A stretch of 64,000 bases of DNA from Calothrix sp. NIES-4105 (GTDB lineage Bacteria; Cyanobacteriota; Cyanobacteriia; Cyanobacteriales; Nostocaceae), in the NCBI RefSeq assembly GCF_002368415.1, contig NZ_AP018290.1, forward strand, positions 124,001 to 188,000. Reading direction: 5' to 3'. Position 1 is the stretch's first letter; the number at the start of each line of letters is the position of its first letter. The notes beneath the pieces were generated by a model that saw nothing but the letters and a program-made list of their open reading frames with translations, was not told the origin of the DNA and did no database searches. Of this stretch, positions 12,052-34,599 are shown in pieces. The position numbers and the translations under genes are program-made.

Positions 12052-12120
12052 GTAGAGACGCGATATATCGCTTCGGCGCCCGTGCGTGGCTTAAAATGTA
12101 GGTTTAATGCAGTTTTAGAT
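12052..12120. repeat. Half repeat GTAGAGAC plus decayed echo of the TPR gene 3' end
   Basis: 12052-12071 is GTAGAGACGCGATATATCGC, a truncated copy of the GTAGAGAC palindrome family. 12075-12120 repeats in shortened form two pieces of the TPR gene (from about 11929, 'ggcgcccgcgcgtggctaa', and about 12014, 'ggtttaatgcag'), with the segment between them deleted. The last codons and TAA stop of the convergent AAA-WD40 gene (12104-12118, LKLH-stop) are made from this echo. Confidence 0.75.
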
Positions 12121-15100
12121 TATCGCACAAATGGCGGTCGCTTTTTTCTACGTTAATATTTGTCCGTAAGTAATCTTGCACCCAGTTGCACGCATACTCT
12201 AGTTCGTTAAGGGTGCGAACTTGCTTTAAGTCCCACAAAATTATCGTACTTTCATCACCACCAGATACTAGAAAGTTACCATTGGTCGTAAACGCAAGGC
12301 TAACTACCATGCCTAAATGTCCCGGTAACGTCTTCAGTAACTCACCCCTTAAATTCCACAACTTGATGGTATTGTCTACACCTGCTGTGGCAATTGTGCT
12401 ACCATCTGGACTAAACGCTACCCGTGTTAATCCCCGACTCTGCCCCGGAATTTTTTTGATTAAGCTGCCCGAAAGGCGCCAAAGATTGAGGGTATCGTCT
12501 CGACTAGCGGAGGCAATAATATTCCCTTGTGGGTTAATTGCGACTCCCCACACCCCACCTTGTACTGGAAGCGTTGTTATTAACCTGCCATCAGTTGCCC
12601 ACAGTTTTACGGTACCATCTACACTCGCCGAGGCAAGCATATCTCCTTGTGGGGTGAAGGCTAATTTCCAAATTCTTCCCTCGTGGGCAACAATGGTTTG
12701 TAAAAGTTTTCCCTCAATCGTCCATAGTTTGATGGTTCTGTCATCTCCTGCTGAGGCGATAGTTTTCCCATCCGGACTAATTGCCACGGTATAAACGCCC
12801 GCTTTATGTCCCATTAATGTCCGCTGTAACCGAATCTCAGATTTATTTTCTCCTAATTTCCATAGCTGCACCGTCGAGTCTTGGTCACCTATGACCATAA
12901 TTTGACTGTTTGGACTGAAGCTTACACTACGAAATGCAGACCTTCTATCTTGAATCGTTTTCCACAGCCTTCCATCAGCCCGCCATACTTTAAGCATATC
13001 ACCACCGACCGAAGCAATCCACTGACCCGAAGGACTGGTGGCAACTTCCCAAACCGTGTCTTGATGACCGTAGAGCGCTCTTAAAAGCAATTTGTTACGC
13101 TTCCAAAGTTTGACTGTACCATCTTCACTGGCGGAAGCAGCAATGAAACCGTCAGCACTCAATACCACGTCTCGAATCACTGCGTTATGCTGCTTCAAGG
13201 TGATCAGAAAGGTTCCGTCTGGCTTCCACAAGCTGACAAATTTATCCTGACCAGCAGTAGCTATATATTTACCGTTAGCGCTACAGCTTACTGCTTGAAT
13301 TGGACTGTCTCTCTGAAGCGTTCTAATGTTGGCGCCGTCTGAATTCCAAAGTTTAGCTGTGCGGTCGCTACTTCCAGACACTAGTATATTTGTTTTTGAA
13401 CAAAATGCAACACTCCAAACAGGTGCAGTATGCCCAGTAAGGGTTTTTAGTAATCTGCTATTAATATTCCATAAATTAATCGTATTATCAGCTCCGGAGG
13501 AAGCAACGGTCTGATTATCAGGGCTAAAAGCAACACCCCAAACTGCTTGCTTATGTCCTGTAAACGTAGTTTGTAATGTACCGTCAAGGCGCCACAATTT
13601 CACTGTGCTGTCCGCACTAGCAGAGGCAATCATTTTGCCGTTAGGGCTGAAAGCTACTTTCCAGATAGGTGCTTGGTGTCCCTGAATTGTCCGCAGCTGC
13701 GTTGCTACTTTACCATTCTCTTCGAGGCGCCACAAGTGGATTGTGCCATCCAAATTGCCACTAACAAACGTGCGACTGTCAGAACTAAAAGCCACGCCAT
13801 AAGGGGTTGCTTTTTGTTCCAAGGTTTGAAGTAACGTGCCGTCTCGTTTCCATATTCTGACGGTTTTGTCGTTACTGCCCGTTGCAAAAAAATTTCCATC
13901 ATGACTCATACTGATGCTTAATACACCACCTTGATGCCCGATTAAACTGTTAAATTCGTTGGTTCCATAAACCGCTTGTCGCAAGTTGGTTTCCACAAGA
14001 GCATTCGTTTTAGCATCAACAAGCACATTTTGCAGTCCGCGTTTGGCTTTAATAGCTGCGACCATCGCATCTAACTTCTGATTCGAGGCAAATAATCCCT
14101 GCGACGACGAAACGAGCGCTTTGATTTCACTGGTTCTGGCTTGACGCGCGCTTTTAATAGCGTTGCGGAACTGAAAGAAAGTAGCAATTGCTAAAACAAC
14201 CGACATAATTAATCCGGTTGTAACTGCACCAAGAAAAAAACGCTGAAATTTAGCTGCTTTTTGTGCTGAAATTAGTCTTGCTTCAATTGCTTCGGCACGA
14301 GATGCTAAGAGTGCTACTTTCATTTCTTCGCGGTCATGTTCTTCGCTATTAGCTAAAAACTGATAATCTAAATTGCTTAAACTTTTCCCTTGCGCCCATT
14401 TTTGAGCATCAATTAATGCTTGTCCGCGCAGCAGTCGGGACAAATCTGTTTGTTTAGAAGCAATCCAAGCATCAAAGGTTTGAGAATAGGGACGTAGACA
14501 ACTTAATTGTTTCTCTACCCATTCAAGGTTGAATACTTCTTGATAAATTCGGTTTTTTACTCTTAGATATCCCTGGTGTTTTTCAACTAATCCGATAAGA
14601 ATTAATTCGGTTTGCTCTTGACTGTTATCGCTTTCTATCCCCCCTACCTCCCTTAATAACAGCGGTTCAAATTGTAAAACTTGCTGATAAATTCCTAGTA
14701 ATCTGCCGCATGTATCGTTGTTGCTAAGGATGCGGCTGCTGATCGTGCGTAAATGTTCTGGTTCATCCTGAGATTGCCAATTTTGAATAACATGCTTTCG
14801 TACTAACTGCGTTAATTGTGTCTCCCCTTCTTGAAATTGGCAATATTGGGTTATATTAAGATTCACTACTAAGTTACACAACTTTTGCGTCAGAAATGGT
14901 TGTCCGGATGTCCAAGCTAAGATTTCTGCCATCACTGCTTGGGGGTCACTTACCCTACCTGCTAATCCTTTCACTAATGGTTGTACTTCTTTTAATTTAA
15001 ATCCATGTAACTCTATGGCTGTACCAATATTAAAGGGAGTACGATTTCTATCAACTATTAAATCGTTTGGTGTCGCAACCCCAAAAATGGCAAAGTTCAG

Positions 15101-15628
15101 ACGATTATATTCGGGATTTATAGCTCTTTGATTATAGCAATAGCGAATTATAGCAAAAAAATCATCTACAGAAAAATTTAAACTCAGAATACTATCTATT
15201 TCATCAAAAAATATAACTATCTTATCTTGAGGAAATTTTACTAATAATACATCTTCAATAAAACAATTTAACTGTTGTAACAGTGATAGATGTTCCACAG
15301 AACTCCACCAAGCTTTTAAATCTAATTGGCTTAGATGATTGAATCCTCGCCATAGTTGAGCCATAATGCCTTTGTACCATTGTATAGGAGTCACATTCTC
15401 GCTACCCACACTGGTCATATCTACAACTATACATATATATCCATCTTGCCGCAGTCTGTATGTAGTGCGTACTAACAGTGAGGATTTGCCCATTTGTCGC
15501 GAGTTCAGAACATAGCAAAACTCTCCCGCACGTAGGGCTGTATAAAGTTTTTCATCTGCTTGCCTAAATACGTAATTTGGTGCGTCGTTCGTAAGACTAC
15601 CCCCGACTTGATAGTTGTAATTGCTCAT
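12104..15628 (-). CDS. AAA-like ATPase with C-terminal WD40 propellers
   Basis: About 1174 residues from the Met of [12 protein letters not shown]; an upstream ATG adds seven unlikely residues. Residues about 1-330 are an AAA-like (AAA_35 type) ATPase: Walker A-like '[11 protein letters not shown]', Walker B '[12 protein letters not shown]'. A single transmembrane segment follows near residue 465 ([22 protein letters not shown]). The C-terminal half has about 14 WD40 blades (for example [20 protein letters not shown]), enough for two seven-bladed propellers, then a short tail with two Cys. Such cyanobacterial proteins resemble STAND-type sensors: the propeller recognises a ligand and the ATPase oligomerises. 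The membrane anchor suggests a sensor at the plasma membrane. No effector enzyme is fused or adjacent. Flanked by echoes of the neighbouring TPR gene. Confidence 0.88.
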
Positions 15629-15653
15629 ACAACAACTCCTCCTTAACATTAAA

Positions 15654-16136: not shown

Positions 16137-16487
16137 ATGTTGAAGAAATCTTTAGTTCTTGGCTTACTCGCAGCTTTTACTATGGCGCCAGCAGCATTTG
16201 CAGGAAGTCAAACACAAGGAAACAGCACCGTCACTACCATCGATGCAGGTAGCGTAGGTCACGGCAACCGAACCAATATCAACAACCGAACCAACGTTGA
16301 CCAATCTCAAAGCAAGTACGAGTCTGGTCGTGGTAGACGTCACTCTCGCAAGTGCAATACTGGCAGCCAAGTTCAAGGAAACGTTACTGACACAGCAATT
16401 TCAGTTGGAAATGTTGGAAATCGTAACAACGCGCGGATTAATAACACAACCAACGTGAACCAGGGTCAATCTGCTGTTTGCCGTTAA
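16137..16487 (+). CDS. Small exported two-repeat, two-Cys protein, copy 1
   Basis: 116 residues. Signal peptide MLKKSLVLGLLAAFTMAPAAFA, cleaved before GSQTQ. The mature protein is two homologous segments of about 37 residues, consensus SQxQGNxTxTxIxxGxVGxxNRxxINNxTNVxQxQS, joined by a basic linker (YESGRGRRHSRKC). Cysteines occur only at the linker end and at residue 115 (AVCR). Spaced Gln/Asn/Gly positions resemble curlin-type beta-solenoid amyloid repeats, but the fold is inferred. It is the first of a head-to-tail family with a common leader. Function unknown; a secreted fibre, sheath component or processed peptide are all possible. Confidence 0.88.
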   Translation: MLKKSLVLGLLAAFTMAPAAFAGSQTQGNSTVTTIDAGSVGHGNRTNINNRTNVDQSQSKYESGRGRRHSRKCNTGSQVQGNVTDTAISVGNVGNRNNARINNTTNVNQGQSAVCR

Positions 16488-16507
16488 TAGTTATCTCTGA
16501 AATATAT

Positions 16508-16536
16508 GTAGAGACGTTAACAGGTAACGTCTCTAC
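16508..16536. repeat. Hairpin GTAGAGAC family, array spacer 1
   Basis: GTAGAGACGTTA, loop ACAGG, TAACGTCTCTAC: a perfect 12-bp stem between copies 1 and 2, starting 20 bases after the stop codon. No T-tract follows, so read-through with RNA processing or partial attenuation is as likely as termination. Confidence 0.85.
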
Positions 16537-16584
16537 CGCAAAAATTAAAACAACAAACACACAACTAATATCAGGTATACAAAA

Positions 16585-16935
16585 ATGTTGAAGAAATCTT
16601 TAGTTCTTGGCTTACTCGCAGCTTTTACTATGGCGCCAGCAGCATTTGCAGGAAGTCAAACACAAGGAAACAGCACCGTCACCACCATCGATGCAGGTAG
16701 CGTAGGTTACGGCAACCGAACCAATATCAACAACCGAACCAACGTTGACCAATCTCAAAGCAGTTATGAGTCTGGTCGTGGTAGACGTCACTCTCGTAAG
16801 TGCAATACTGGCAGTCAAGTTCAAGGAAACGTTACTGACACAGCAATTTCAGTTGGAAATGTTGGAAATCGTAACAACGCGCGGATTAATAACACGACCA
16901 ACGTTAACCAAGGTCAATCTGCTGTTTGCCGTTAA
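16585..16935 (+). CDS. Small exported two-repeat, two-Cys protein, copy 2
   Basis: 116 residues, identical to copy 1 except for a His-to-Tyr change in the first repeat (VGYGNR) and Lys-to-Ser before the linker (QSSYES). Same signal peptide, linker Cys and C-terminal Cys. The unit length from copy 1 is 448 bp including the spacer hairpin, so the whole gene-plus-spacer was duplicated. Near-identity at the DNA level points to recent amplification or ongoing gene conversion. Confidence 0.88.
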   Translation: MLKKSLVLGLLAAFTMAPAAFAGSQTQGNSTVTTIDAGSVGYGNRTNINNRTNVDQSQSSYESGRGRRHSRKCNTGSQVQGNVTDTAISVGNVGNRNNARINNTTNVNQGQSAVCR

Positions 16936-16955
16936 TAGTTATCTCTGAAATATAC

Positions 16956-16983
16956 GTAGAGATGTGATTAATCACGTCTCTAC
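16956..16983. repeat. Hairpin GTAGAGAC family, array spacer 2
   Basis: GTAGAGATGTGATT pairs with AATCACGTCTCTAC; one G-U pair is the only imperfection. The outer eight bases match the first spacer but the inner stem differs on both arms. Confidence 0.85.
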
Positions 16984-17031
16984 CGTAAAAATTAAAACAA
17001 CAAGCACACAACTAATATCAGGTATACAAAA

Positions 17032-17382
17032 ATGTTGAAGAAATCTTTAGTTCTTGGCTTACTCGCAGCTTTTACTATGGCGCCAGCAGCATTTGCAGGA
17101 AGTCAAACACAAGGAAACAGCACCGTCACCACCATCGATGCAGGTAGTGTAGGTCACGGCAACCGAACCAATATCAACAACCGAACCAACGTTGACCAAT
17201 CTCAAAGCAAGTATGAGTCTGGTCGTGGTAGACGTCACTCTCGTAAGTGCCGCACTGGCAGCCAAGTTCAAGGAAACGTTACCGACACAGCAATTTCAGT
17301 TGGAAATGTTGGAAATCGTAACAACGCGCGGATTAATAACACAACCAACGTGAACCAAGGTCAATCTGCTGTTTGCCGTTAA
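17032..17382 (+). CDS. Small exported two-repeat, two-Cys protein, copy 3
   Basis: 116 residues, differing from copy 1 at essentially one site (Asn-to-Arg after the linker Cys, KCRTGS). Signal peptide, linker and both cysteines are conserved. Unit spacing from copy 2 is 447 bp. It belongs to the recently amplified trio at the upstream end of the array. Confidence 0.88.
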   Translation: MLKKSLVLGLLAAFTMAPAAFAGSQTQGNSTVTTIDAGSVGHGNRTNINNRTNVDQSQSKYESGRGRRHSRKCRTGSQVQGNVTDTAISVGNVGNRNNARINNTTNVNQGQSAVCR

Positions 17383-17402
17383 TAGTTATCTCTGAAATAT
17401 AC

Positions 17403-17430
17403 GTAGAGATGTGATTAATCACGTCTCTAC
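17403..17430. repeat. Hairpin GTAGAGAC family, array spacer 3
   Basis: Same 28 bases as spacer 2 (arms GTAGAGATGTGATT and AATCACGTCTCTAC), 20 bases after the stop codon of copy 3. Confidence 0.85.
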
Positions 17431-17474
17431 CGCAAAAATTAAAACAACACACAACTAACATTAGGTATACAAAA

Positions 17475-17822
17475 ATGTTGAAGAAATCTTTAGTTCTTGG
17501 CTTACTCGCAGCTTTTACTATGGCGCCAGCAGCATTTGCAGGAAGTCAAACACAAGGAAACAGCACCGTCACTACCATCGATGCAGGTAGCGTAGGTAAT
17601 GGCAACAGAACCACTATCAACAACGGAACTTACGTCAACCAATCTCAAAGCAGTTATGAGTCTGGTCGTGGTCGTCGCTATCGCAAGTGCAATACTGGCA
17701 GCCAAGTTCAAGGAAACGTTACTGACACAGCAATTTCAGTGGGACATGTTGGAAATCGTAACCGCGCGCGGATTAATAACATAACCAACGTGAACCAGGG
17801 TCAATCTGCTGTTTGCCGTTAA
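17475..17822 (+). CDS. Small exported two-repeat, two-Cys protein, copy 4
   Basis: 115 residues. The signal peptide and first 19 mature residues match copies 1-3, but repeat 1 diverges (GNGNRTTINNGTYVNQ) and the linker is one residue shorter (GRGRRYRKC). The two cysteines are retained. Unit spacing from copy 3 is 443 bp. It is intermediate in divergence between the near-identical trio and copies 5-7. Confidence 0.87.
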   Translation: MLKKSLVLGLLAAFTMAPAAFAGSQTQGNSTVTTIDAGSVGNGNRTTINNGTYVNQSQSSYESGRGRRYRKCNTGSQVQGNVTDTAISVGHVGNRNRARINNITNVNQGQSAVCR

Positions 17823-17842
17823 TAGTTATCTCTGAAATATAT

Positions 17843-17870
17843 GTAGAGACTAAACATGTTTAGTCTCTAC
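17843..17870. repeat. Hairpin GTAGAGAC family, array spacer 4 (perfect palindrome)
   Basis: GTAGAGACTAAACA is followed directly by its reverse complement TGTTTAGTCTCTAC. The outer stem is as in spacers 1-3, while the inner stem is entirely different yet still perfectly paired: compensatory change. Confidence 0.88.
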
Positions 17871-17907
17871 AAACAACACACATACAACTAACATCAGGTA
17901 TACAAAA

Positions 17908-18258
17908 ATGTTAAAGAAATCTTTAGTTATTGGCTTACTCGCAGTAATGGCAATGGCGCCCGCAGCATTTGCAGATGACCAAATACAAGGTAACACCACT
18001 GTTACCACCATCGAAGCAGGTAGTGTAGGTAACGGCAACCGAAGCATTATTGACAACGTAACCAACGTTGGACAATATCAAAGCAAGTATGAGTATCGTC
18101 GCGGCAGGCGCCATAGAAGTCAGTGTTCTGGTGGCAACCAAGTTCAAGGAAACACCACCGATACAGTAATTTCTGCTGGTAACGTCGGAAATTACAACCG
18201 CACCCGCGTATCGAATCAAACTAACGTTAACCAAAGTCAATTTACTGCTTGTTACTAA
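17908..18258 (+). CDS. Small exported two-repeat, two-Cys protein, copy 5
   Basis: 116 residues with signal peptide MLKKSLVIGLLAVMAMAPAAFA. Both repeats are recognisable (QIQGNTTVTTIEAGSVGNGN; QVQGNTTDTVISAGNVGNYN) but substituted at many positions. The linker (YRRGRRHRSQC) keeps its basic character and Cys, and the C-terminus ends TACY. It still has the AGGTATAC leader, but no GTAGAGAC hairpin follows. The start of copy 6 is only 33 bases after the stop. Confidence 0.87.
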   Translation: MLKKSLVIGLLAVMAMAPAAFADDQIQGNTTVTTIEAGSVGNGNRSIIDNVTNVGQYQSKYEYRRGRRHRSQCSGGNQVQGNTTDTVISAGNVGNYNRTRVSNQTNVNQSQFTACY

Positions 18259-18290
18259 TTACTAAATATATAGGAATAAATAAAGCAGTT

Positions 18291-18629
18291 ATGTTAAAGA
18301 AATCTTTGGTTATTGGTATACTCGCTGCCTTTGCAATGGCGCCTGTCGCATTTGCGGGTGAACAAGTGCAGGGTGATACTGGAAATACAAATATTAATGC
18401 TAATAATGTTGGTAGAAACAACAAAATCCGCGTTATTAACAAAACCTACGTTATTAGATCGCAAAGAAGAGCTAAAAAGCTTTTGTGTCAAGCTCCTAGC
18501 AATCAAACTCAAGCGAACGTGGGCGACACAAACATCAATGCGATAAATCAAGGAAATCGCAACCGTATCAAGATTACTAACATCAACAACGTTGTCCAAG
18601 GTCAATCTGTAGATTGTTCAACAAGGTAA
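18291..18629 (+). CDS. Small exported two-repeat, two-Cys protein, copy 6 (divergent)
   Basis: 112 residues from ATG 18291; a longer frame from 18249 would bury the signal peptide and is rejected. Signal peptide MLKKSLVIGILAAFAMAPVAFA. The repeats are diverged (QVQGDTGNTNINANNVGRNN; QTQANVGDTNINAINQGNRN) but spaced as in the others; the linker is Arg/Lys-rich with one Cys (RRAKKLLCQ) and the C-terminus is VDCSTR. A purine-rich AGGAATAA precedes the start. Clear member of the family, though not part of the recent amplification. Confidence 0.85.
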   Translation: MLKKSLVIGILAAFAMAPVAFAGEQVQGDTGNTNINANNVGRNNKIRVINKTYVIRSQRRAKKLLCQAPSNQTQANVGDTNINAINQGNRNRIKITNINNVVQGQSVDCSTR

Positions 18630-18683
18630 CTTGAAAAGCACCAACTCAACGAAACATTACATACATTAATGAAGGTTAAAAAC

Positions 18684-19019
18684 ATGAGAAATTCTATCTT
18701 CGCTCTTGGTTTATTAGCAGCAGTACTTATAGTTCCCAACGCTGCATTTGCTGGTTCACGTCAAGAAGCAACTCAAGAACTTAATCAATCTGTATACGTA
18801 AATGGTTCCGGTAACTCTGCCAACGTTAACGGTACCCAAATCACCAACCAAAACCAAACCCGAAATAGACAAAGATATTGCGGCCGTAGTTCTGGTTCTC
18901 AACGTCAATATTCCGACCAACTTTTGAATCAAAATGTAGGCATTAGTGGGCGCCATAATCAAGTCAACGTTAACGGAACACAGAGAACCACCCAAAATCA
19001 AGTTAAATCTGGCTGTTAA
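18684..19019 (+). CDS. Small exported two-repeat, two-Cys protein, copy 7 (distant)
   Basis: 111 residues from ATG 18684, chosen because GAAGG ends 9 bases upstream; the ATG at 18669 overlaps that site. Signal peptide MRNSIFALGLLAAVLIVPNAAFA. Two repeats of a related but different motif (QELNQSVYVNGSGNSANVNG; DQLLNQNVGISGRHNQVNVNG) flank a basic linker with one Cys (RNRQRYCGRS), and the chain ends in SGC. The architecture equals copies 1-6 although sequence identity is low. The [LNQxVxxxGxxNxxNVNG] pattern is the most curlin-like in the array. Confidence 0.83.
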   Translation: MRNSIFALGLLAAVLIVPNAAFAGSRQEATQELNQSVYVNGSGNSANVNGTQITNQNQTRNRQRYCGRSSGSQRQYSDQLLNQNVGISGRHNQVNVNGTQRTTQNQVKSGC

Positions 19020-19091
19020 GAACGGGCGCCACAGAAACTCGGTTTCTTATCTTATTACTATCCATCAATCATCATATCTAGGTACAAAATT

Positions 19092-19454
19092 ATGAAACTA
19101 AAATTAATCGCGCTTGCGACTGTAATCAGCGCAATGCCAACACTGGTTCCTGCACTCACACATAAAGCTAGTGCAACCTGCATTAACGTAGCAGTTGATA
19201 ACCAAATTGCAATTCGCGACCGCAATCAACCAGCGACCCAAAGAAGAAACACCAATCAAAGCATCAGCAGTGATTGTTTCGGCAACACCTCTACCGCAAC
19301 CGGAACTCAAGTCTATACCGGAGGAGGTAAAGTTAATCAAACCATTAATAGAACCCAGCATCTTTCTGGTGGTAAAAACCCAACAGGAGTACGGATGCCA
19401 CATATTAACATCAATGTTGGCACCAAAGTAAACGTACCTGGACCCAAACGTTAA
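19092..19454 (+). CDS. Small exported Gln/Asn/Thr-rich protein, array member 8
   Basis: 120 residues with signal peptide MKLKLIALATVISAMPTLVPALTHKASA. The mature part is short on hydrophobics and rich in Q, N, T and G, with two Cys (TCIN and SDCFG) placed differently from copies 1-7, and a Pro/Gly C-terminus (NVPGPKR). One weak repeat pair can be seen around NQSISSD and NQTINRT. It lies 72 bases after copy 7 and before the array's terminator, so it is likely cotranscribed. Distant relationship to the others is inferred from context. Confidence 0.75.
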   Translation: MKLKLIALATVISAMPTLVPALTHKASATCINVAVDNQIAIRDRNQPATQRRNTNQSISSDCFGNTSTATGTQVYTGGGKVNQTINRTQHLSGGKNPTGVRMPHININVGTKVNVPGPKR

Positions 19455-19500: not shown

Positions 19501-19519
19501 GCCCCCTTCAGGGGGCTTT
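19501..19519 (+). terminator. Terminator after the small-protein array
   Basis: GCCCCC-TTCA-GGGGGC followed by TTT: a compact, GC-rich six-pair stem with a tetraloop, 46 bases past the last array stop codon. The T-run is short, but the position supports an operon terminator. Confidence 0.7.
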
Positions 19520-19668: not shown

Positions 19669-20244
19669 ATGAAAAAACTACTTTTGTACGCTTTACCCCT
19701 TGGCTTAATTATTAGTGTAATCACTTTATTAAGCAATAATTCTTATAGCCAACAAACTTCGAGCGTAAAAACAACAATTAGCTCAAATAGCTCAAAACAA
19801 ACATCTCAACACTCAGTAAAAAATATTGAGAAAGACATTGACGAAGACTCAGATAACCACGAAGATCACGAAGAAGATGATGTGAATTTTACATCTTCCC
19901 ATAGTCAAATATCAAGCAATTCTGATATCCAAAGAAATAGCTTGAATATAAACGCAGCTGATCTTAAGCAACCTCATATACTCAAAATCAACTCTTCCAA
20001 CGCCAAATTACAGGGACAAATTAAAATAAACGGAAAAGTCGTTAGGCGCCTAAAAAACAACCAATCAGAAATTAACTTATCGCCATATTTATCTAGAGGG
20101 CAACAAAAAGTAGAAATTTCAGGTAGTTATACACCAGTAACAGCATCCGTAACCGTAGAAATGAAAAGTGCAGACAATAATATTTCCCAGCAAACAAGCG
20201 GTAACGGAATCCTAAATTACACCCTAGATTTAAATGTACAGTAG
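19669..20244 (+). CDS. Exported protein of unknown function, acidic linker
   Basis: 191 residues. Signal peptide about residues 1-27 (LLLYALPLGLIISVITLLSNNSYS). Residues 30-90 are Ser/Thr-rich, then very acidic with His (DIDEDSDNHEDHEEDD), a possible metal-binding or extended linker. The C-terminal 90 residues look like a small beta-sandwich (LKINSSNAKLQGQIKINGKVVRRL; QKVEISGSYTPVTASVTVEM). I do not recognise the family. It follows the small-protein array on the same strand, but a terminator separates them. Confidence 0.7.
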   Translation: MKKLLLYALPLGLIISVITLLSNNSYSQQTSSVKTTISSNSSKQTSQHSVKNIEKDIDEDSDNHEDHEEDDVNFTSSHSQISSNSDIQRNSLNINAADLKQPHILKINSSNAKLQGQIKINGKVVRRLKNNQSEINLSPYLSRGQQKVEISGSYTPVTASVTVEMKSADNNISQQTSGNGILNYTLDLNVQ

Positions 20245-20328: not shown

Positions 20329-20667
20329 TTAACTTGGACGTACAATACGCACTAATTTATTTGATAAAGGTTCTGAAGCCATTATCGCTTCGTTGATACG
20401 AGCAGCCATCCTAGACCTATCCATATCATTCGTGATCACGATAATACCCGCATGAAGAGGATTAGCTCTGTGCAGTCGAACAAAGTCATCTCGGTTGAGA
20501 GTCATAACCGCGCGATTATCGCTAACTGCAAAAGCTAATACTTCATCATCTGGAATACCTAAATTCGCATTTCCGGCTTCTTGCACTGTTAAAACATCAT
20601 GTCCCATCGCTTGTAACAGTTCGCTAACTATTCTGGGAAACTGTTCGTCTGCGTACAAACGCGCCAT
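20329..20667 (-). CDS. DUF5615-type PIN-like toxin
   Basis: 112 residues. The N-terminal 'RLYADEQFP' has the first acidic residues of the PIN-like DUF5615 fold; 'GIPDDEVLAFA' and 'LNRDDFVRLH' supply further conserved acidic positions. Members are predicted metal-dependent ribonucleases and toxins of DUF433/DUF5615 toxin-antitoxin pairs. It begins 2 bases after the end of the DUF433 gene on the same strand, the standard antitoxin-first order. Complete and apparently intact. Confidence 0.85.
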   Translation of the reverse strand: MARLYADEQFPRIVSELLQAMGHDVLTVQEAGNANLGIPDDEVLAFAVSDNRAVMTLNRDDFVRLHRANPLHAGIIVITNDMDRSRMAARINEAIMASEPLSNKLVRIVRPS

Positions 20668-20669
20668 TC

Positions 20670-20996
20670 TTAAGCTACCTCATTGGCATGGATCGCCGCT
20701 TCAATTTCTTCTGGGTGCGCTTCTGTATATACCCAAGCATTAACTAAATCAGCAGCACTGATATGAGGATAATCCTGTAAAAGTTGAGCTTCACTAATTC
20801 CAATCCGACGTGCTTCTACCAGTAGCCACACAGCAATGCGTGTTCCTGCAATACATGCTTCTCCACCACACACACCTGGTGTTTTTGTAATACCTCTGGC
20901 GCCGATGTTAATAGTTTTAGTTAAACTTTGGATTATAGCTGCTTTTTCAGTTGATGGTAATGCAAGAATCTGAATTTCTAGTTCTTTAAGAGTCAT
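20670..20996 (-). CDS. DUF433 antitoxin
   Basis: 108 residues with the DUF433 winged-helix-like core: 'ITKTPGVCGGEACIAGTRIAVWLLVEARRIG' followed by 'LLQDYPHISAADLVNAWVYTEAHPEEI'. DUF433 proteins bind DNA and neutralise adjacent DUF5615 nucleases. The N-terminal 35 residues are an extra helical segment. Two bases separate it from the toxin gene, so translational coupling and autoregulation are expected. It sits just downstream of the TamB-like gene on the same strand. Confidence 0.87.
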   Translation of the reverse strand: MTLKELEIQILALPSTEKAAIIQSLTKTINIGARGITKTPGVCGGEACIAGTRIAVWLLVEARRIGISEAQLLQDYPHISAADLVNAWVYTEAHPEEIEAAIHANEVA

Positions 20997-21060: not shown

Positions 21061-24000
21061 TTACAATCTGCTTTCATATTCAACTAACGCGCGGTAGTCT
21101 TCGAGAGAAAAGTCTGATGAACCTCGCAATAATATTTTGTCATTTATTCGGTATATTACGTTGTATCTAAATGGTTCATCTACTATAAAGACGCGCGATA
21201 CTGATAACGATATATTTCTATTTATATTAAATCCTGCTTCTGCTGCTAACCCTAATACAGATGAACCTCTATTTGAACTGCTGCTATTGATGACTGTAGG
21301 ATACAGACGTAGTTCGCTTAAACCTAGCGTTTGACCAAGTGAGCTTATTATTCCTTGCAAGGGTGTTAATAATGTATTTCCTGCTAAGGATATTATTCCT
21401 AGTCCTGCATCTTGTTGGTTAAGTGCGTTAACGAAAGTCCCTCCTATTAAAGATACTATTTCGGCTCTGTTGCGTCTTGGGTCACTTGTTAATTCTAAGT
21501 TGTTTTCTAGTTTACTTGCTGGCCCATTTGCACGCGCGAATACACGAACACTCCGTAATGTTCCCAAGCTGGTTGCAGGAACATCGCTTATTTCACTCGA
21601 TATCGGTGATGTGGGTATTCTCACTGCTGTTGCTTCTGGCACTATTGCTAATAATCTTACGTTCAGTATCGGGTCTAAACCTTGACTCGGTGTAAATGTT
21701 GCAGTTTGTTCATATCCTTGTTCTAAAACAAATTGTGTGGTAAATAAGTTAATTTGTCCCCCTGTTAAATTAATTACTCCTTGAGGAAGTGGTTTTTCTA
21801 AGGTACCATTTATTGTTAAGGCGCCTTCTGCATTAAAACTTAGTAACTTTTGACCACTGAACCCTGTGAAAACTTCGTTACTCAAATTTAGTAATGGTTG
21901 ACTCGTTACACGCACGTCTTTTTCTAATATTAATCTTAAATCTGAAAATCCAATTGGTGGACGTGGTGTAGTATTTGTTTGAGTCGTTTCATTTAATCTA
22001 TTTTGCTGACTTTGAGCTACTATATTATTTGTAACGTTTAAAGATGTTTGCTGTTGTGGTTGTTGCGTTTGTCGAGATGAAGAAGGAAGTATTACTTCAC
22101 CGTTTGCTAATCTTATTGTTCCACCTATTACTGGTTTAACCGCGCTACCTGTAATTATCGCATCACCGCTAACTCTTCCTCGATATAATTCTTGTAATCT
22201 CACGTTCAAGTCATTCAATGATACGGTCAAAGGATTATTTACTGTTTGCGCTTCAAATATTGGTAGACTTCCTACTGCTGTCACTGCTCCTTTATTATAT
22301 GTACCTTCTAAATTAACGTTTACAACCCTACGGTCAAATTGTGCGGCACCTGTTACATTAGTTAAAGGTTCGGTTAATGCTTGTGCTGTTAAAGTCGCAT
22401 TATCAACGTTTGCTGTTCCGGTAATAGTCGGTTGACTTAAGGTTCCCCCTATTGCTACATTTACTTGTCCCGTTCCATTAACCCAGGAAACCTGGTCGGT
22501 AAATATATTTAAAAGTGATAAACCATCGTCTTTTACATTTGCGGTGATATTAATTTGATTACTATCTGGAGCGGCGCCGAATGGTAATGCAGCTGGTATA
22601 CTACCTATAATATTAAGTGGCTGTGCCGAAGTTGCCGCAACAGTACTACTAAAATTTAAACGCGCGTTATTTAAACCAAAACTCAATTCTGCGCTTTTTA
22701 TCGGTTTTTCATTCAACGTCGCATTAGCTAGAGAAACATCCCCTTTTGCACTCGGATTTGTTAAACTACCACTCAGCGCTGTTAAAGCATTTATTTCTCC
22801 TGTCGCATTCACCGGAAATTTGACAAACCGTTGTAATGATGAAATAGGTAAGCTACTTACCCGTATCTGTCCCGATAAGTCTTTTTGACTCAACTGTCCT
22901 GTAAATGCTAACGTTCCACCATCAAAACCTACTCGCAAAGGTTGCAACGTTAATATTCCATCTGCAAAACCACCATTCCCTATTACTTCCCCAATGTTAT
23001 AACTTCCCCATACCACATTTGAACCGTTTACATTAAAATTCGTATTTAAGCCTGAATTTAATGAACCTGTCACATCCAGCTTTGCACTAATTAAACCTTG
23101 TAGTTCGCTTAGTGCTGGTATTCCTGTTGCATCTTGTCGCTGTTGTTGCGCTTGTTGAACAGCTATATTTTCTGTAATCTTACTAAATACATCTAACTGC
23201 GTTAACAAACTTTCATCCTGCGGTAATAATAACGCATCTGTTGGTTTTAATGCCGAAGCACCTGCTAACTTAGGAGAGTTTACACCTGTTGATAAATCTT
23301 GAAGGTCGAAAATACTAAATGCTGGTAAAAGCTTTTCAATTCTAGCTTGATTTATATTCGCGCTTAAATTAACTTCACGATTTCCCCGTGTGCCTACACT
23401 ACCACTCAGTGCTAAAGTGCTATCAGCAACTTTAAATTCTCCATTACTCAAACTCGCAGTTCCATTAATAAAGCTAACCTGTCCTGTGAATGAGTCTCCT
23501 GCAATTCTACCAATTCTAGGTTGAACGATAGCAACATCACCTGAAGCATCTCTCGTTTTGATATTTGCCTGTATTGTACCTGATATATTCCCTGCTAACG
23601 GTTGGATATTTGGATTATTGGCTGGAACCAGACTTCTCAAAACAGCTACAGGAAAATTATTTGCTGACGCTATTAGATTATCTCCTTGTAAACTACCAGT
23701 TGCAGAACTTTCCCCACGCTTTATGTTAAATGATGTTGGAAGATTATTGGCGCCCAGGTTGACTGCTATTATATCTTGTCTGTTACCTGTCAGGTTTAAA
23801 GAGGCGCCTTTTGAACCTTGATAACTAACACTTCCTGCTAAAACTGGGTCAAACGCTAAGTTGTTGATAGCAAAGTTTCGTAACTCTAAATTTCCCACCG
23901 CAACAGGAGTGTCTAAATTCCCTGTTACATTACCTGTAAAATCAAGTCTACCCGCAACTGCAAGATTTGGTATTGTTATAGGCGCCTGTTGTAAGTTAAA

Positions 24001-26973
24001 GTTACGTGCAGCGATATTGAAATTCAAATCTGTAATTTGTGGTGTCGCTGTTTGAGTGTTGACTGCTATCACACCATTCGCATTTAACCCTGTAGTGGTC
24101 GCACTCAGTGTCACGAGTTGACCGTCCCACTGTAAGTTCCCCCTTAACGGTTGAGACAGTAGTGGTGACACCCCTTGAGATAAATTAAAATTTCCACCCG
24201 CGCGAATATTTGATAAAGCAAACGATTTTGTCGTTCCCGCTATATTAAAGTTACTATTCAACCGACCACGCAAATTAGACGAAAACTGATTTAATGCAAC
24301 TTCTGAAACACCACCATTAACAAACCAACGACCGTTATTCAAATTGATATTGCTTAAATTAACTCTTCCTCCTGCTATATTATTTATTGTCGCTAGTCCC
24401 AATACTCGCAAATTCTCTAATTCTAAAGCATCAGTACTACCCGATATATTTAACGCTGTATTCAAATTTCCTGATGAAAGTTGTTTTGGTAATCGTATAT
24501 TAAAACGGTTTAACTGGATATCTGACGCACCAACCGCTACATTAAAGCGTTTATTTTCAAGTTTACCGCGCGCTGTCACCCTTCCACTCGGCGCCGTTAA
24601 CTGTGCTATTGTGCTTAAATTCCCCAGTGTACCTGAAATATTCGCGTTTGCCGAAACATTACCTATTGTTATTGGTGTATTTACTTTATAAGCGCGCGCT
24701 ATTGCATCTCCCGGTATTTGCAAAGCGTTTAAATTCAAGTTTACTCGACCTTGTTGCGCTAACTGTATATTACCTCTACCCGTTACTACTCCTCCAATAG
24801 TTGGCGCCACTTTTAAGTTTTGTAAAGCGAGTTGTAATGAAGGAGTACCCAAACGACCAGAAACATTACCAGTCGCAGCAACATTACCAACATTTACCGG
24901 GAGAGCAAAATTATATGCTTGTGCAACAGCATTTCCAGGAATTCCAGAAGCTTGTATATTTAGATTGACATTTCCTTGCTGCGCTAACTGTATATTACCA
25001 GTTCCTGTAATTTGTCCACCAATGGTGGGCGCCACTTTTAAGTTTTGTAAAGCGAGTTGTAATGAAGGAGTACCCAAACGACCAGAAACATTACCAGTCG
25101 CAGCAACGTTACCTATATTTACCGGGAGAGCAAAATTATATGCTTGTGCAACAGCGTTACCTGGAATTCCAGAAGCTTGTATATTTAGATTGACATTTCC
25201 TTGCTGCGCTAACTGTATATTACCAGTTCCTGTAATTTGTCCACCAATGGTGGGCGCCACTTTTAAGTTTTGTAAAGCGAGTTGTAATGAAGGAGTACCC
25301 AAACGACCAGAAACATTACCAGTCGCAGCAACATTGCCTATATTTATAGGAAGGGCAAAATTATATGCTCTTGCAACTGCATTTCCTGGAATTCCCGAAG
25401 CTTGTATATTAAGGTTGATGCTGGGTTGCTGTGCAAGTTGTATATTACCGTTTGCAGTAACTTGTCCTCCTATTTGTGGTTTGACGTTAAAGTTAGAAAC
25501 AGCAAGTTGAAGTGCTTGACCGAGTTGTCCAGAAATATTCGCGTTTGTTGTAACGTTACCAATATTGAGGGGAAGTGCAACATTATATATACCCGCAACA
25601 GTATTTCCTGGAATTTCTGAAGCTTGTATATTCAGGTTTACTTGGCCTTTCTGTGCAAGCTGTATTTTTCCTGAACCTGTAACTCGTCCTCCTAAAGTTG
25701 GGGTGACTTGTAAGTCGGAGATGGTGAGGACTGGGGTATTGCCTAATGTATCTACACGAAAGTTTGAGTTGATGTTATTTAACTGAAAACGGTCAATAGT
25801 GGCAAGTTTTACAGTACTTATTGTTCCTGTTGCAGTTGGTTGCTTGATGCTTCCTTGAATTTTGACGTTTGCTTGTACTTGTCCAATTGCTGTAACTGGT
25901 AATTTGGCGTTAACTGTGCTGAGAATACTTTGAAAGCTGACAGGTTTGACTATTGCATTTAAATTGTAACCTGTTTGGGTATTTAAGGTGCCTATAAGCT
26001 GTAATGGAATTTTGCCAATATTCGTAGTTACGTTATTTAGACCAATTTCCTTACCTTGAAACTGTAGTCTTCCCTGTGTATTCGTGATTGGTATGGGGAT
26101 ATTATCTACTTTAGCGGCAATTTGATTTAAATCAGCCGTTCCGGTTAGAGAAATTGGTGCCTGTGGTGTAATATCAACAGTTAAGTTAGCATTGACGCTA
26201 CCGTTATAGACATTAATTGGTGTCTGTACTAACTTACTTATATCAGCAACGAGTAAATCGTGCGCTTGAACATTTAAGTTAGTAGAACCAACTTGTCCTG
26301 AAACTAACTGTGTTTTCCCGTCGATATCCACTTTACCTTGACTATTGCTTGCCCTTGCGCCGACTTCATAACTAAAGCCTTGTTCTGGTAAAATGCGAAG
26401 AACACCATTTGCTCCATTAAAACCAACAGAACTTTTCGGTGTACCAGGTTTTGGGTATGGTACTAACGCTAAACTAGCATTGCGGATAACCAGACTTTCT
26501 AAATTAGTTCTAATAAAACCTTTTTCTTCTCGAGCAGTCTTTATTTGTGTAGATAACCATTGACCATTTTTATCTTGTTCCAAATAAACGTTCGGTTCGA
26601 CTAAAGTTACATTTAAATTCAAAGTTCGAGTCAAAAGAACTTGTAAAGGGTTAAACTGGACATCAATAGCTTTTGCAACAACTCTATCTGAGTCAGTCGG
26701 AGTTGCTGGAATATTAAGCGAGCTAAATCTGATACTATTTAAAGTAACACTTGATACTTTTCCTACTTCTATTGGTCGTCCAAGTAACTGAGCCAGATTT
26801 GTTTGAACTAAAGGTACTAAATCATTCAGTATAAAATTTCTTAACCACCAGGCGCCACCAGTAAGGGAAGCGAGTAAAACCACAACTAAAACGATACTAC
26901 CACGTCTTAAGAGTAATAACCGTAAGCGACGATTCGATGGTTCAGACTCACGTCCTGGTGGTAACTGTGTCAT
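21061..26973 (-). CDS. tamB: TamB-like translocation/assembly module protein (DUF490)
   Basis: 1970 residues. One N-terminal transmembrane anchor (about 20-45, GSIVLVVVLLASLTGGAWWL), then an enormous repetitive beta-rich region, then the conserved C-terminal DUF490/TamB domain (about 1600-1970: 'ALTINGTLEKPLPQGVINLTGGQINLFTTQFVLEQG' to 'YRALVEYESRL'). TamB/AsmA-like proteins form a hydrophobic groove spanning the periplasm from inner membrane to the BAM/TamA complex, and serve lipid transport and outer-membrane protein assembly. It is longer than proteobacterial TamB (about 1260 residues), as is common in cyanobacteria. A block of 75-residue modules near residues 490-760 is duplicated almost perfectly at the DNA level. 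No Omp85 gene is adjacent. Confidence 0.9.
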   Translation of the reverse strand: MTQLPPGRESEPSNRRLRLLLLRRGSIVLVVVLLASLTGGAWWLRNFILNDLVPLVQTNLAQLLGRPIEVGKVSSVTLNSIRFSSLNIPATPTDSDRVVAKAIDVQFNPLQVLLTRTLNLNVTLVEPNVYLEQDKNGQWLSTQIKTAREEKGFIRTNLESLVIRNASLALVPYPKPGTPKSSVGFNGANGVLRILPEQGFSYEVGARASNSQGKVDIDGKTQLVSGQVGSTNLNVQAHDLLVADISKLVQTPINVYNGSVNANLTVDITPQAPISLTGTADLNQIAAKVDNIPIPITNTQGRLQFQGKEIGLNNVTTNIGKIPLQLIGTLNTQTGYNLNAIVKPVSFQSILSTVNAKLPVTAIGQVQANVKIQGSIKQPTATGTISTVKLATIDRFQLNNINSNFRVDTLGNTPVLTISDLQVTPTLGGRVTGSGKIQLAQKGQVNLNIQASEIPGNTVAGIYNVALPLNIGNVTTNANISGQLGQALQLAVSNFNVKPQIGGQVTANGNIQLAQQPSINLNIQASGIPGNAVARAYNFALPINIGNVAATGNVSGRLGTPSLQLALQNLKVAPTIGGQITGTGNIQLAQQGNVNLNIQASGIPGNAVAQAYNFALPVNIGNVAATGNVSGRLGTPSLQLALQNLKVAPTIGGQITGTGNIQLAQQGNVNLNIQASGIPGNAVAQAYNFALPVNVGNVAATGNVSGRLGTPSLQLALQNLKVAPTIGGVVTGRGNIQLAQQGRVNLNLNALQIPGDAIARAYKVNTPITIGNVSANANISGTLGNLSTIAQLTAPSGRVTARGKLENKRFNVAVGASDIQLNRFNIRLPKQLSSGNLNTALNISGSTDALELENLRVLGLATINNIAGGRVNLSNINLNNGRWFVNGGVSEVALNQFSSNLRGRLNSNFNIAGTTKSFALSNIRAGGNFNLSQGVSPLLSQPLRGNLQWDGQLVTLSATTTGLNANGVIAVNTQTATPQITDLNFNIAARNFNLQQAPITIPNLAVAGRLDFTGNVTGNLDTPVAVGNLELRNFAINNLAFDPVLAGSVSYQGSKGASLNLTGNRQDIIAVNLGANNLPTSFNIKRGESSATGSLQGDNLIASANNFPVAVLRSLVPANNPNIQPLAGNISGTIQANIKTRDASGDVAIVQPRIGRIAGDSFTGQVSFINGTASLSNGEFKVADSTLALSGSVGTRGNREVNLSANINQARIEKLLPAFSIFDLQDLSTGVNSPKLAGASALKPTDALLLPQDESLLTQLDVFSKITENIAVQQAQQQRQDATGIPALSELQGLISAKLDVTGSLNSGLNTNFNVNGSNVVWGSYNIGEVIGNGGFADGILTLQPLRVGFDGGTLAFTGQLSQKDLSGQIRVSSLPISSLQRFVKFPVNATGEINALTALSGSLTNPSAKGDVSLANATLNEKPIKSAELSFGLNNARLNFSSTVAATSAQPLNIIGSIPAALPFGAAPDSNQINITANVKDDGLSLLNIFTDQVSWVNGTGQVNVAIGGTLSQPTITGTANVDNATLTAQALTEPLTNVTGAAQFDRRVVNVNLEGTYNKGAVTAVGSLPIFEAQTVNNPLTVSLNDLNVRLQELYRGRVSGDAIITGSAVKPVIGGTIRLANGEVILPSSSRQTQQPQQQTSLNVTNNIVAQSQQNRLNETTQTNTTPRPPIGFSDLRLILEKDVRVTSQPLLNLSNEVFTGFSGQKLLSFNAEGALTINGTLEKPLPQGVINLTGGQINLFTTQFVLEQGYEQTATFTPSQGLDPILNVRLLAIVPEATAVRIPTSPISSEISDVPATSLGTLRSVRVFARANGPASKLENNLELTSDPRRNRAEIVSLIGGTFVNALNQQDAGLGIISLAGNTLLTPLQGIISSLGQTLGLSELRLYPTVINSSSSNRGSSVLGLAAEAGFNINRNISLSVSRVFIVDEPFRYNVIYRINDKILLRGSSDFSLEDYRALVEYESRL
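24803..25477 (-). repeat. Three 225-bp tandem repeats inside the tamB-like gene
   Basis: The string 'ggcgccacttttaagttttg' starts at 24803, 25028 and 25253, exactly 225 bp apart. Each unit encodes a 75-residue module (LKVAPTIGG...GNVNLNIQASGIPGN...FALPVNIGNVAATGNVSG). Degenerate further units lie on both sides. Unit length fits extension of the beta-groove by whole modules. Confidence 0.9.
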
Positions 26974-34571: not shown

Positions 34572-34599
34572 GTAGAGACGTTACATGTAACGTCTCTAC
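34572..34599. terminator. Perfect 28-bp GTAGAGAC palindrome after lipoprotein gene
   Basis: GTAGAGACGTTACA is followed by its exact complement TGTAACGTCTCTAC, 13 bases past the stop codon. The position supports a terminator or mRNA 3'-end role; the family is shared with the small-protein array. Confidence 0.7.

What the first reader, a model, noticed from the sequence alone, without database searches (positions are those of the whole stretch)
16137..19454. Tandem array of small exported two-repeat, two-cysteine proteins
Seven consecutive genes encode a signal peptide, two ~37-residue Q/N/G repeats, a basic linker with one Cys and a C-terminal Cys; an eighth related secreted protein closes the array. 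Copies 1-3 are nearly identical; divergence rises stepwise from copy 4 to 7. The fixed cysteines suggest a disulfide (within or between subunits), and the repeat pattern recalls curlin-like amyloids. This may be an undescribed surface fibre or sheath system with copy-number variation.
Basis: partly seen in the sequence, partly recalled or inferred. Interest (0 to 1): 0.85.

Follow-up and report, generated by a model that had tools for sequence, protein, structure and literature searches.

The report
Tandem secreted fibre-like cyanobacterial repeat proteins
Seven small secreted proteins in a row, each made of two matching folded loops, belong to a conserved but apparently undescribed cyanobacterial gene cluster that probably builds a protein fibre or coat on the outside of the cells.

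Summary
Seven tandem genes (16137-19019) encode proteins of 112-116 aa with a signal peptide, two repeats and two cysteines. Copies 1-4 are 93-97% identical in DNA. Copy 7 is an older paralogue with counterparts in relatives; the eighth gene (19092-19454, family B) shows no homology to the repeats.

The array belongs to a cyanobacterial cluster, in full form A(1-7)-E-B-C-D. A genes are in 45 of 195 genomes of the order, all with B or C. No Pfam or NCBIfam family fits convincingly.

Each repeat is mirror-symmetric around a G-x-x-N turn (i + j = 19); the strict motif recurs at 18 of 35 held-out loci. Cys pairs inside the kernel sit at mirror positions, and 64 of 66 non-redundant proteins have an even Cys number. 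This supports two strand-turn-strand units with intramolecular disulfides. C is predicted as an Ig-like sandwich (pLDDT 90).

Best reading: subunits of an extracellular beta-arch fibre or coat that works like curli but is not curli: no curlin repeat or CsgG in the genome, no profile match to CsgA, CsgB or CsgC. Fibre formation, outer-membrane export and function are inferred; AlphaFold confidence for A is low (46.7).

The parts
16137..16487 (+). A copy 1, two-repeat exported protein, 116 aa (major type)
16508..16536 (+). intergenic hairpin GTAGAGAC..GTCTCTAC, a dispersed repeat of this genome
16585..16935 (+). A copy 2 (major type)
16956..16983 (+). intergenic hairpin of the same kind, one base changed in the first arm
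   Evidence: sequence
17032..17382 (+). A copy 3 (major type)
17403..17430 (+). intergenic hairpin, identical to the one at 16956
   Evidence: sequence
17475..17822 (+). A copy 4, 115 aa (major type)
17843..17870 (+). intergenic hairpin, fully paired inner arms
17908..18258 (+). A copy 5 (major type, older)
18291..18629 (+). A copy 6, 112 aa (branches first among copies 1-6)
18669..19019 (+). A copy 7: distinct paralogue with counterparts in relatives, candidate minor or starter subunit
19092..19454 (+). family B: 120 aa exported protein; two Cys (C30, C62) invariant in the 19 aligned members (the B of L046, not aligned, lacks the first); not homologous to A by profile
19501..19516 (+). terminator-like hairpin GCCCCC-TTCA-GGGGGC followed by TTTC, between B and C
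   Evidence: sequence; not among the hits of the scan
19669..20244 (+). family C: 191 aa exported protein with C-terminal Ig-like beta-sandwich (model pLDDT 90.1)

Best explanation
The array makes the subunits of an extracellular cross-beta fibre or coat. Each subunit is exported by Sec (inferred from the signal sequence) and folds as two long strand-turn-strand units whose inward residues mirror each other about a G-x-x-N turn. A disulfide between the Cys that closes repeat 1 and the Cys that closes repeat 2 staples the two units on top of each other (inferred from Cys parity and position). The open edges of the two units then let subunits stack end to end. Copies 1-6 supply the bulk subunit, so several near-identical copies would act as dosage. 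Copy 7 is a candidate minor or starter subunit. B (two conserved Cys) is a candidate cap or adaptor, and C (Ig-like sandwich) a candidate periplasmic or surface holder of the subunits. Shown: gene family, cluster, repeat symmetry, Cys pattern, predicted fold of C. Inferred: secretion across the outer membrane, stacking, the roles of copy 7, B and C, and the biological role (surface coat, sheath or biofilm matrix).
For: Signal-peptide-like starts on A, B and C (read). Cluster: of 40 C genes in 195 genomes, 30 have B directly upstream on the same strand with 34-555 bp between the matches; A occurs in 45 of 195 genomes, all 45 with B or C, 12.0 expected without regard to kinship. Two G-x-x-N turns 20-70 aa apart: 53 of 104 small exported proteins near B/C against 16.9 by shuffling; 3 of 28 others against 1.5. 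Strict motif Q-x3-Q-x5-G-x2-N-x3-Q-x3-Q: 39 sites in 23 of the 104, shuffle mean 0.01, 0 of 28 others; held-out set: 37 sites in 20 of 90 proteins at 18 of 35 loci, shuffle mean 0.01, 0 of 13 others. Mirror symmetry at axis 19: window copies 56 of 120 inward pairs identical against 7 of 105 outward pairs; other families 108 of 392 against 30 of 328. Cys pairs inside the kernel at 5/14 or 1/18 (sum 19) in 7 proteins and at 5/14 in 10 held-out proteins, several of them close relatives. Even Cys number in 64 of 66 non-redundant A proteins. AlphaFold2 places strands 10-18, 23-39, 63-71 and 76-92 on either side of the two G-x-x-N turns of copy 5. C: pLDDT 90.1, pTM 0.81, nearly all beta; one of 19 C members matches Pfam Big_7, a bacterial Ig domain, at E 9.9e-5; Foldseek neighbours include a pilin domain at probability 1.00.
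Against: Confidence of the A model is low (pLDDT 46.7, pTM 0.29; 69 of 94 residues under 50), which also fits a disordered protein. No profile relation to curlin and no Curlin_rpt in the genome. No outer-membrane channel seen in the cluster: CsgG is absent from this genome and does not go with the family in the order (7 genomes with both, 10.2 expected); among gene families present in 5 or more of the 78 clustered loci none looked like a secretion channel (one ABC-transporter ATPase family was in 5 loci). A two-repeat unit is short for a free-standing solenoid. Window copies 1-6 lack the Q ladder at 3/16 and -1/20 (I/I or I/V and mostly T/T instead). Seven two-Cys windows do not fit the mirror rule (see Tried and rejected). 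No expression or localisation data.
Confidence: 0.55

Rival explanations
1. Disordered matrix glue: the Q/N/G/T-rich, basic, very hydrophilic proteins stay unfolded outside the cell and bind acidic exopolysaccharide of the sheath; the repeats are sticky segments and the cysteines cross-link chains.
For: Low AlphaFold2 confidence; pI 9.2-11.2 and GRAVY -0.9 to -1.3 for the four A copies computed; strong sequence drift between families.
Against: Position-specific mirror symmetry, mirror-placed Cys pairs and the invariant or near-invariant G-x-x-N in both repeats of the 18 aligned proteins are not expected of a disordered tether; even Cys number favours intramolecular pairing.
Confidence: 0.22
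2. Periplasmic or outer-membrane-bound structural proteins of the cell envelope (for example septal or peptidoglycan-linked) that never leave the cell.
For: Signal peptide but no recognised outer-membrane export gene in the cluster; C is Ig-like and could be periplasmic.
Against: A special role in septa of filaments is not favoured by the spread: C is in genomes down to 3.5 Mb and in a Pleurocapsales record, B in two genomes outside the order. No canonical lipobox or membrane anchor seen by eye in the window proteins (not scanned with a program).
Confidence: 0.12
3. Secreted peptides for signalling or for killing competitors, kept in several copies for dosage or diversity.
For: Small, exported, probably disulfide-bonded, multicopy, with fast divergence between genomes; an AAA_35-WD40 gene next to the array.
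Against: Among families in 5 or more of 78 loci none looked like an immunity or maturation gene; copies 1-4 are near identical rather than diversified; repeat symmetry points to a structural role.
Confidence: 0.06
4. A true, very diverged curli system.
For: Same outline: G-x-x-N turn, Q/N ladder, multicopy and minor subunit, Ig-like accessory; members at this locus in relatives carry Q-x-G-x-x-N (L048); one of 18 A proteins gives a weak match to the CsgB model, E 0.039.
Against: No CsgG, no Curlin_rpt hit, hhalign probability 0.1-0.3% to CsgA, CsgB and CsgC, different spacing of the conserved Q.
Confidence: 0.05

Closest known systems
Curli (CsgA/CsgB with CsgC, CsgE, CsgF, CsgG)
   Same: Exported repeat proteins; repeat = strand, G-x-x-N turn, strand with pseudo-symmetric inward residues; more than one subunit type; an Ig-like accessory (C here; that CsgC is Ig-like is recalled).
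   Different: Two long repeats per protein instead of 4 or more of about 23 aa (PMC10192328, passages read); motif Q-x3-Q-x5-G-x2-N-x3-Q-x3-Q instead of Q7/Q18; disulfides; no CsgG; no profile match. CsgE and CsgF were not searched for.
Rodlins and chaplins of Streptomyces
   Same: Small secreted paralogous proteins that coat filamentous bacteria, some of them amyloid (PMC5314377, passages read); a Cys pair in chaplins is recalled, not tested.
   Different: No hit of the 18 A proteins scanned to a rodlin or chaplin model in NCBIfam or Pfam; other phylum, other sequence pattern.
EbfG1-4 of Synechococcus elongatus
   Same: Four-gene operon of small extracellular cyanobacterial proteins, three of which form amyloid (PMC9981879, passages read).
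   Different: Secretion of EbfG involves the peptidase-transporter PteB and EbfE; no two-repeat G-x-x-N unit is mentioned in the passages read. Sequences not compared here.
Ig-like pilin domains (EbpB basal pilin)
   Same: Best well-scored fold neighbours of C (Foldseek probability 0.98-1.00, TM-score 0.51-0.53 by query); that this domain is Ig-like is recalled.
   Different: E 0.009 at best and 14% identity; no hit at E 0.001 or better, so fold class only.

Membership tests
Curli system | Curlin repeat (Pfam PF07012) in the subunit | tested here: not met
   no hit in the window copies, the own genome, 10 relatives or the 18 aligned proteins
Curli system | CsgG outer-membrane channel in the genome | tested here: not met
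   0 matches in the 12.0 Mb genome; 4 of 14 control genomes over the cut-off
Curli system | Profile similarity to CsgA or CsgB | tested here: not met
   hhalign probability 0.1% and 0.3% against E. coli K-12 CsgA and CsgB; one side is a single sequence, so weak power
Curli system | Kernel N/S-x-hydrophobic-x-hydrophobic-x-Q-x-G-x-x-N-x-hydrophobic-x-hydrophobic-x-Q | tested here: inconclusive
   Copies 1-6 have hydrophobic 3, 5 and 16, G9 and N12, with N or S (once H) for Q7 and N for Q18; the family consensus has Q at -1, 3, 16 and 20 instead
Curli system | CsgC or CsgH chaperone | tested here: not met
   C against CsgC 0.15%; CsgC not among the 50 of 655 Foldseek rows shown; CsgH not compared
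Curli system | CsgE and CsgF | not tested
   no search made
Functional amyloid (by behaviour) | Fibrils, ThT or Congo red binding, cross-beta diffraction | not testable with these tools
   needs protein
Functional amyloid (by behaviour) | Export signal on the subunits | tested here: met
   signal-peptide-like N-termini read directly and by a simple home-made rule; SignalP not available
Functional amyloid (by behaviour) | Confident predicted beta-solenoid or beta-arch | tested here: inconclusive
   right strand pattern, pLDDT 46.7 only
Rodlin / chaplin | Match to family models | tested here: not met
   none among 18 A proteins at E 1

The most novel reading that the evidence does not exclude
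A new class of bacterial surface-fibre system: subunits with two mirror-symmetric strand-turn-strand units held by an internal disulfide, with its own minor subunit (copy 7 type), Cys-bearing partners (E, B), Ig-like holder (C) and coiled-coil partner (D), built without CsgG and spread over cyanobacteria as the cluster A-E-B-C-D, with subunit dosage set by tandem duplication.
Probability: 0.45. Interest if true: 0.82.

Novelty: new variant of a known kind. Interest (0 to 1): 0.68.

Why it matters
No description of this gene cluster was found in the papers searched, and no curated family model matches its repeat proteins convincingly. If the A proteins form fibres, many cyanobacteria would have a protein coat or matrix system unrelated to curli, with disulfide-stapled subunits small enough to make and study easily. 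The repeat rule (i + j = 19), the Cys pairs and the gene order give direct, cheap tests in culture, and would help answer what protein, if any, structures the cyanobacterial sheath and biofilm matrix.

Tried and rejected
Family searches: Pfam and NCBIfam scans of A, B, C, D and E members gave nothing convincing; the one match of note is Big_7 (bacterial Ig) in one of 19 C members, E 9.9e-5, its cut-off not shown. PDB by sequence: nothing for copy 5 at E 10, one meaningless hit at E 1.4 for the A profile, one at E 2 for C. Plasmid collection: no match for copy 5. CsgG as the missing exporter: rejected for this genome and not associated in the order. TamB (21061-26973) as a partner: rejected, no relative in the other loci. 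B as an eighth A copy: rejected. AAA_35-WD40 gene (12104-15649): relatives in 17 of 78 loci, but at varying places and of a gene class that I recall as common in such genomes, so not counted as part of the system.

The B, C and A profiles were built from loci found by neighbourhood. The near/far rule used a simple signal-peptide test of my own. Loci L043 and L044 duplicate L051 and L052 and were dropped from the counts. Four loci (L082-L085) were fetched because of A hits. Of the 35 held-out loci, 11 come from genomes that also gave a locus to the first set. Seven proteins that fail the two-GxxN rule but lie in the same arrays or clusters were added by hand, and D-type proteins removed, before the Cys count. 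The tree holds 46 rows from 17 chosen sources, of which at least 6 are not A proteins. The 79 kernels include spurious G-x-x-N matches.

Results against: seven two-Cys windows do not sum to 19 (vicinal CC near the N-terminus in L057, L064 x3, L067, L068, L072). In one search an E-type protein also gives a pair summing to 19 (-3/22), by chance, and an unrelated protein one summing to 22. Axis 12 scored 0.422, but on three column pairs only. Axes 23 and 15 also rise (0.23 and 0.17), which the four-residue spacing of Q explains. One of the 15 window kernels counted is a spurious register in copy 6. The terminator scan found 6 sites against 4.4 by chance and the promoter scan 7 against 10.2, so neither was used.
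Full report
OBSERVATION. The window lies at 124001-188000 of the 11.06 Mb contig of a 12.0 Mb genome in 8 contigs; relatives of its genes in named cyanobacterial records show that it is a cyanobacterium. The seven genes stand as described. Copies 1, 2 and 3 differ pairwise by 1-3 non-synonymous and 5-7 synonymous codons. Between copies 1-5 lie four intergenic hairpins of the form GTAGAGAC...GTCTCTAC, two of them with a one-base change in the first arm. The exact pattern has three sites in the window and 284 in the genome against 0 for the control pattern, so these are a dispersed repeat, not part of the system. A GC-rich hairpin with a short T run at 19501-19516 separates B from C.

WHAT IS AROUND IT. 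The gene after B, 19669-20244, has a relative elsewhere in the same genome, at 10.107 Mb (63% identity over 122 aa), again next to an A gene. That led to family C: 34 of 195 genomes of the order, by single sequence and by profile. The gene closing the array, 19092-19454, is family B: 48 of 195 genomes of the order and 21 of 386 genomes of a phylum sample, 2 of them outside the order. B and C share 30 genomes, 8.4 expected. Of 40 C genes, 30 have B directly upstream on the same strand. The ten without include the second locus of this genome and the two most diverged C genes (L080, L081); L080 shows by eye a B-like gene that the profile missed. Family A, by a profile of 18 mature proteins (A8), is in 45 of 195 genomes; all 45 have B or C (12.0 expected), and 7 genomes have B or C without A. 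BLAST clustering of the genes of 77 loci plus the window gave B in 65, A in 58 (111 genes in one cluster), C in 45, E in 27 and D in 16 of 78; E-like genes of the window's own family fell in part outside the E cluster, so E is undercounted. The full gene order is A(n)-E-B-C-D, with parts missing in many loci, the window among them (no E, no D). In six loci a helix-turn-helix (XRE) gene stands divergently upstream of the A genes (one gene between in L093); five of the six are in the window's own family, including the second locus of this genome. Among families in 5 or more loci none looks like a secretion channel; one ABC-transporter ATPase family is in 5 loci.

THE REPEAT. Aligned on the G of G-x-x-N (called position 9), 79 kernels from 29 non-redundant A proteins have Q at -1, 3, 16 and 20 in 45, 45, 35 and 50 cases, and about half have A, V, I or another hydrophobic residue at 5 and 14. 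The pattern is symmetric about the turn: position i matches 19 - i. The column-profile similarity is 0.396 at axis 19; among axes with six or more column pairs the next is 0.177. In the window copies 56 of 120 inward (odd) mirror pairs are identical against 7 of 105 outward ones, and the best other axis has 30 of 105. In 25 other non-redundant proteins the figures are 108 of 392 against 30 of 328. In copies 1-5 the pairs are Q-7/Q26, Q-5/Q24, T-1/T20 and I3/I16 (I3/V16 once). Copy 7 has Q-1/Q20 and Q3/V16, between the window type and the general type.

HELD-OUT TEST. The motif was defined mainly on C-centred loci. I then fetched 35 B-centred loci not used before (11 of them from genomes already sampled at another place). 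Small exported proteins near B carry the strict Q motif in 20 of 90 cases (37 sites, 18 loci; shuffles 0.01) and 0 of 13 others do. Two G-x-x-N turns occur in 38 of 90 against 13.0 by shuffling, and in 0 of 13 others.

CYSTEINES. Where two Cys lie inside one kernel of an A protein they sit at 5 and 14 or at 1 and 18, positions that face each other across the turn: 7 proteins and 10 held-out proteins, several of them close relatives; pairs outside the kernel that break the rule are listed under Tried and rejected. In seven loci of the window's own family (window, L047, L087, L089, L091, L092, L093) the two Cys instead close repeat 1 and repeat 2: 25 of 26 proteins listed, the other having none. 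Four further loci of that family (L079, L088, L090, L094) carry the general type, with no Cys or the 5/14 pair. Counts are even in 64 of 66 non-redundant proteins (28 with 0, 32 with 2, 4 with 4). This favours intramolecular disulfides.

STRUCTURE. AlphaFold2 on copy 5 with nine sequences gives pLDDT 46.7, too low to trust as a fold, but strands 10-18/23-39 and 63-71/76-92 flank the two G-x-x-N turns. C with five sequences gives pLDDT 90.1 and pTM 0.81, beta strands with one short helix. Foldseek finds no PDB match at E 0.001 or better; among the 50 of 655 rows shown the neighbours are mainly pilin, fimbrial, fibronectin-like and glycosidase entries.

ARRAY HISTORY. Copies 1-4 are recent duplicates, 5 and 6 older ones of the same clade (support 0.98). 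Copy 7 groups with L089_4033 and L087_5860 (support 0.87 and 0.81), each the last A gene before the E-like gene and B. The window's copies 1-6 group with the second locus and the L089 majors (0.99). Supports rest on about 90 residues. Four other genomes of the same family have 3 to 5 A genes at the locus (L087, L089, L091, L092) and five have 1 or 2 (L079, L088, L090, L093, L094), so copy number varies between species; variation within a species was not tested.

INTERPRETATION. Small exported subunits made of paired mirror-symmetric strand-turn-strand units with glutamine or asparagine ladders, disulfide staples, several near-identical copies and one distinct copy, clustered with an Ig-like partner, are best explained as fibre or coat subunits. 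The likeness to curli is one of working principle. Published curlin features (minimal repeat X6QXGX2NX10, PMC3521004; kernel, 4-62 repeats of about 23 aa, and CsgG in nearly all CsgA genomes, PMC10192328; passages read) are not met here. Curlin and A share the G-x-x-N turn and inward Q/N, and differ in strand length, Q positions, repeat number and disulfides. Whether the strands of a unit lie in one sheet (hairpin) or in two (arch) cannot be told from i + j = 19 alone.

LITERATURE. Searches returned listings, most of them capped, and none of the titles or abstract starts shown describes these families. For four papers I read passages (PMC3521004, PMC10192328, PMC9981879, PMC5314377); the others were seen as listings only. 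Preprints and most subscription journals are not covered.

VERDICT. A real, conserved and apparently undescribed system; fibre function likely but unproven.

Noticed in passing
G000 contig 1, about 10.107-10.109 Mb (L007, L013, L047): Second, smaller cluster in the same genome: divergent XRE regulator, one A gene, an E-like Cys protein with a run of NRI repeats, and C, but no B.
   Followed up: partly
window 12104-15649 (-): AAA_35 plus WD40-repeat protein divergent from the array; relatives occur in 17 of 78 cluster loci, possibly only because the class is common.
   Followed up: partly
window 16508-16536, 17843-17870, 34572-34599: Dispersed palindrome GTAGAGAC..GTCTCTAC with covarying inner arms; 284 sites in the genome.
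   Followed up: partly
window 20329-20996 (-): DUF433 / DUF5615 pair, a likely toxin-antitoxin module (recalled).
   Followed up: no
window 21061-26973 (-): TamB-like protein of 1970 aa; no relative in the other cluster loci.
   Followed up: partly
window 27592-29562 and 29666-30889 (+): Two proteins of the beta-lactamase fold (PF00144 and PF13354), function not examined.
   Followed up: no
L096 6355-6894 (-); L102 4307-4786; L117 4390-4848: A-like exported proteins next to B with three G-x-x-N repeats instead of two, so repeat number varies in some lineages.
   Followed up: no
L050 8782-9327 (+) and relatives: Family D: exported protein with a conserved PVNTENDxG..SVGVNTLD block, QPGRT and a C-terminal coiled-coil-like stretch, downstream of C or B in 16 of 78 loci; no Pfam match at cut-off among the four scanned.
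   Followed up: partly
L107 12390-13499 (-) and relatives: Longer proteins (358-811 aa, 5 of 78 loci) whose start shows the same kind of G-x-N-N-x-V-x-Q units; possibly a large relative of the A repeat.
   Followed up: no
L048 9816-10250 and 10343-10777 (-): Two tandem A genes with identical proteins in another family, with Q-x-G-x-x-N turns closest to the curlin motif.
   Followed up: partly
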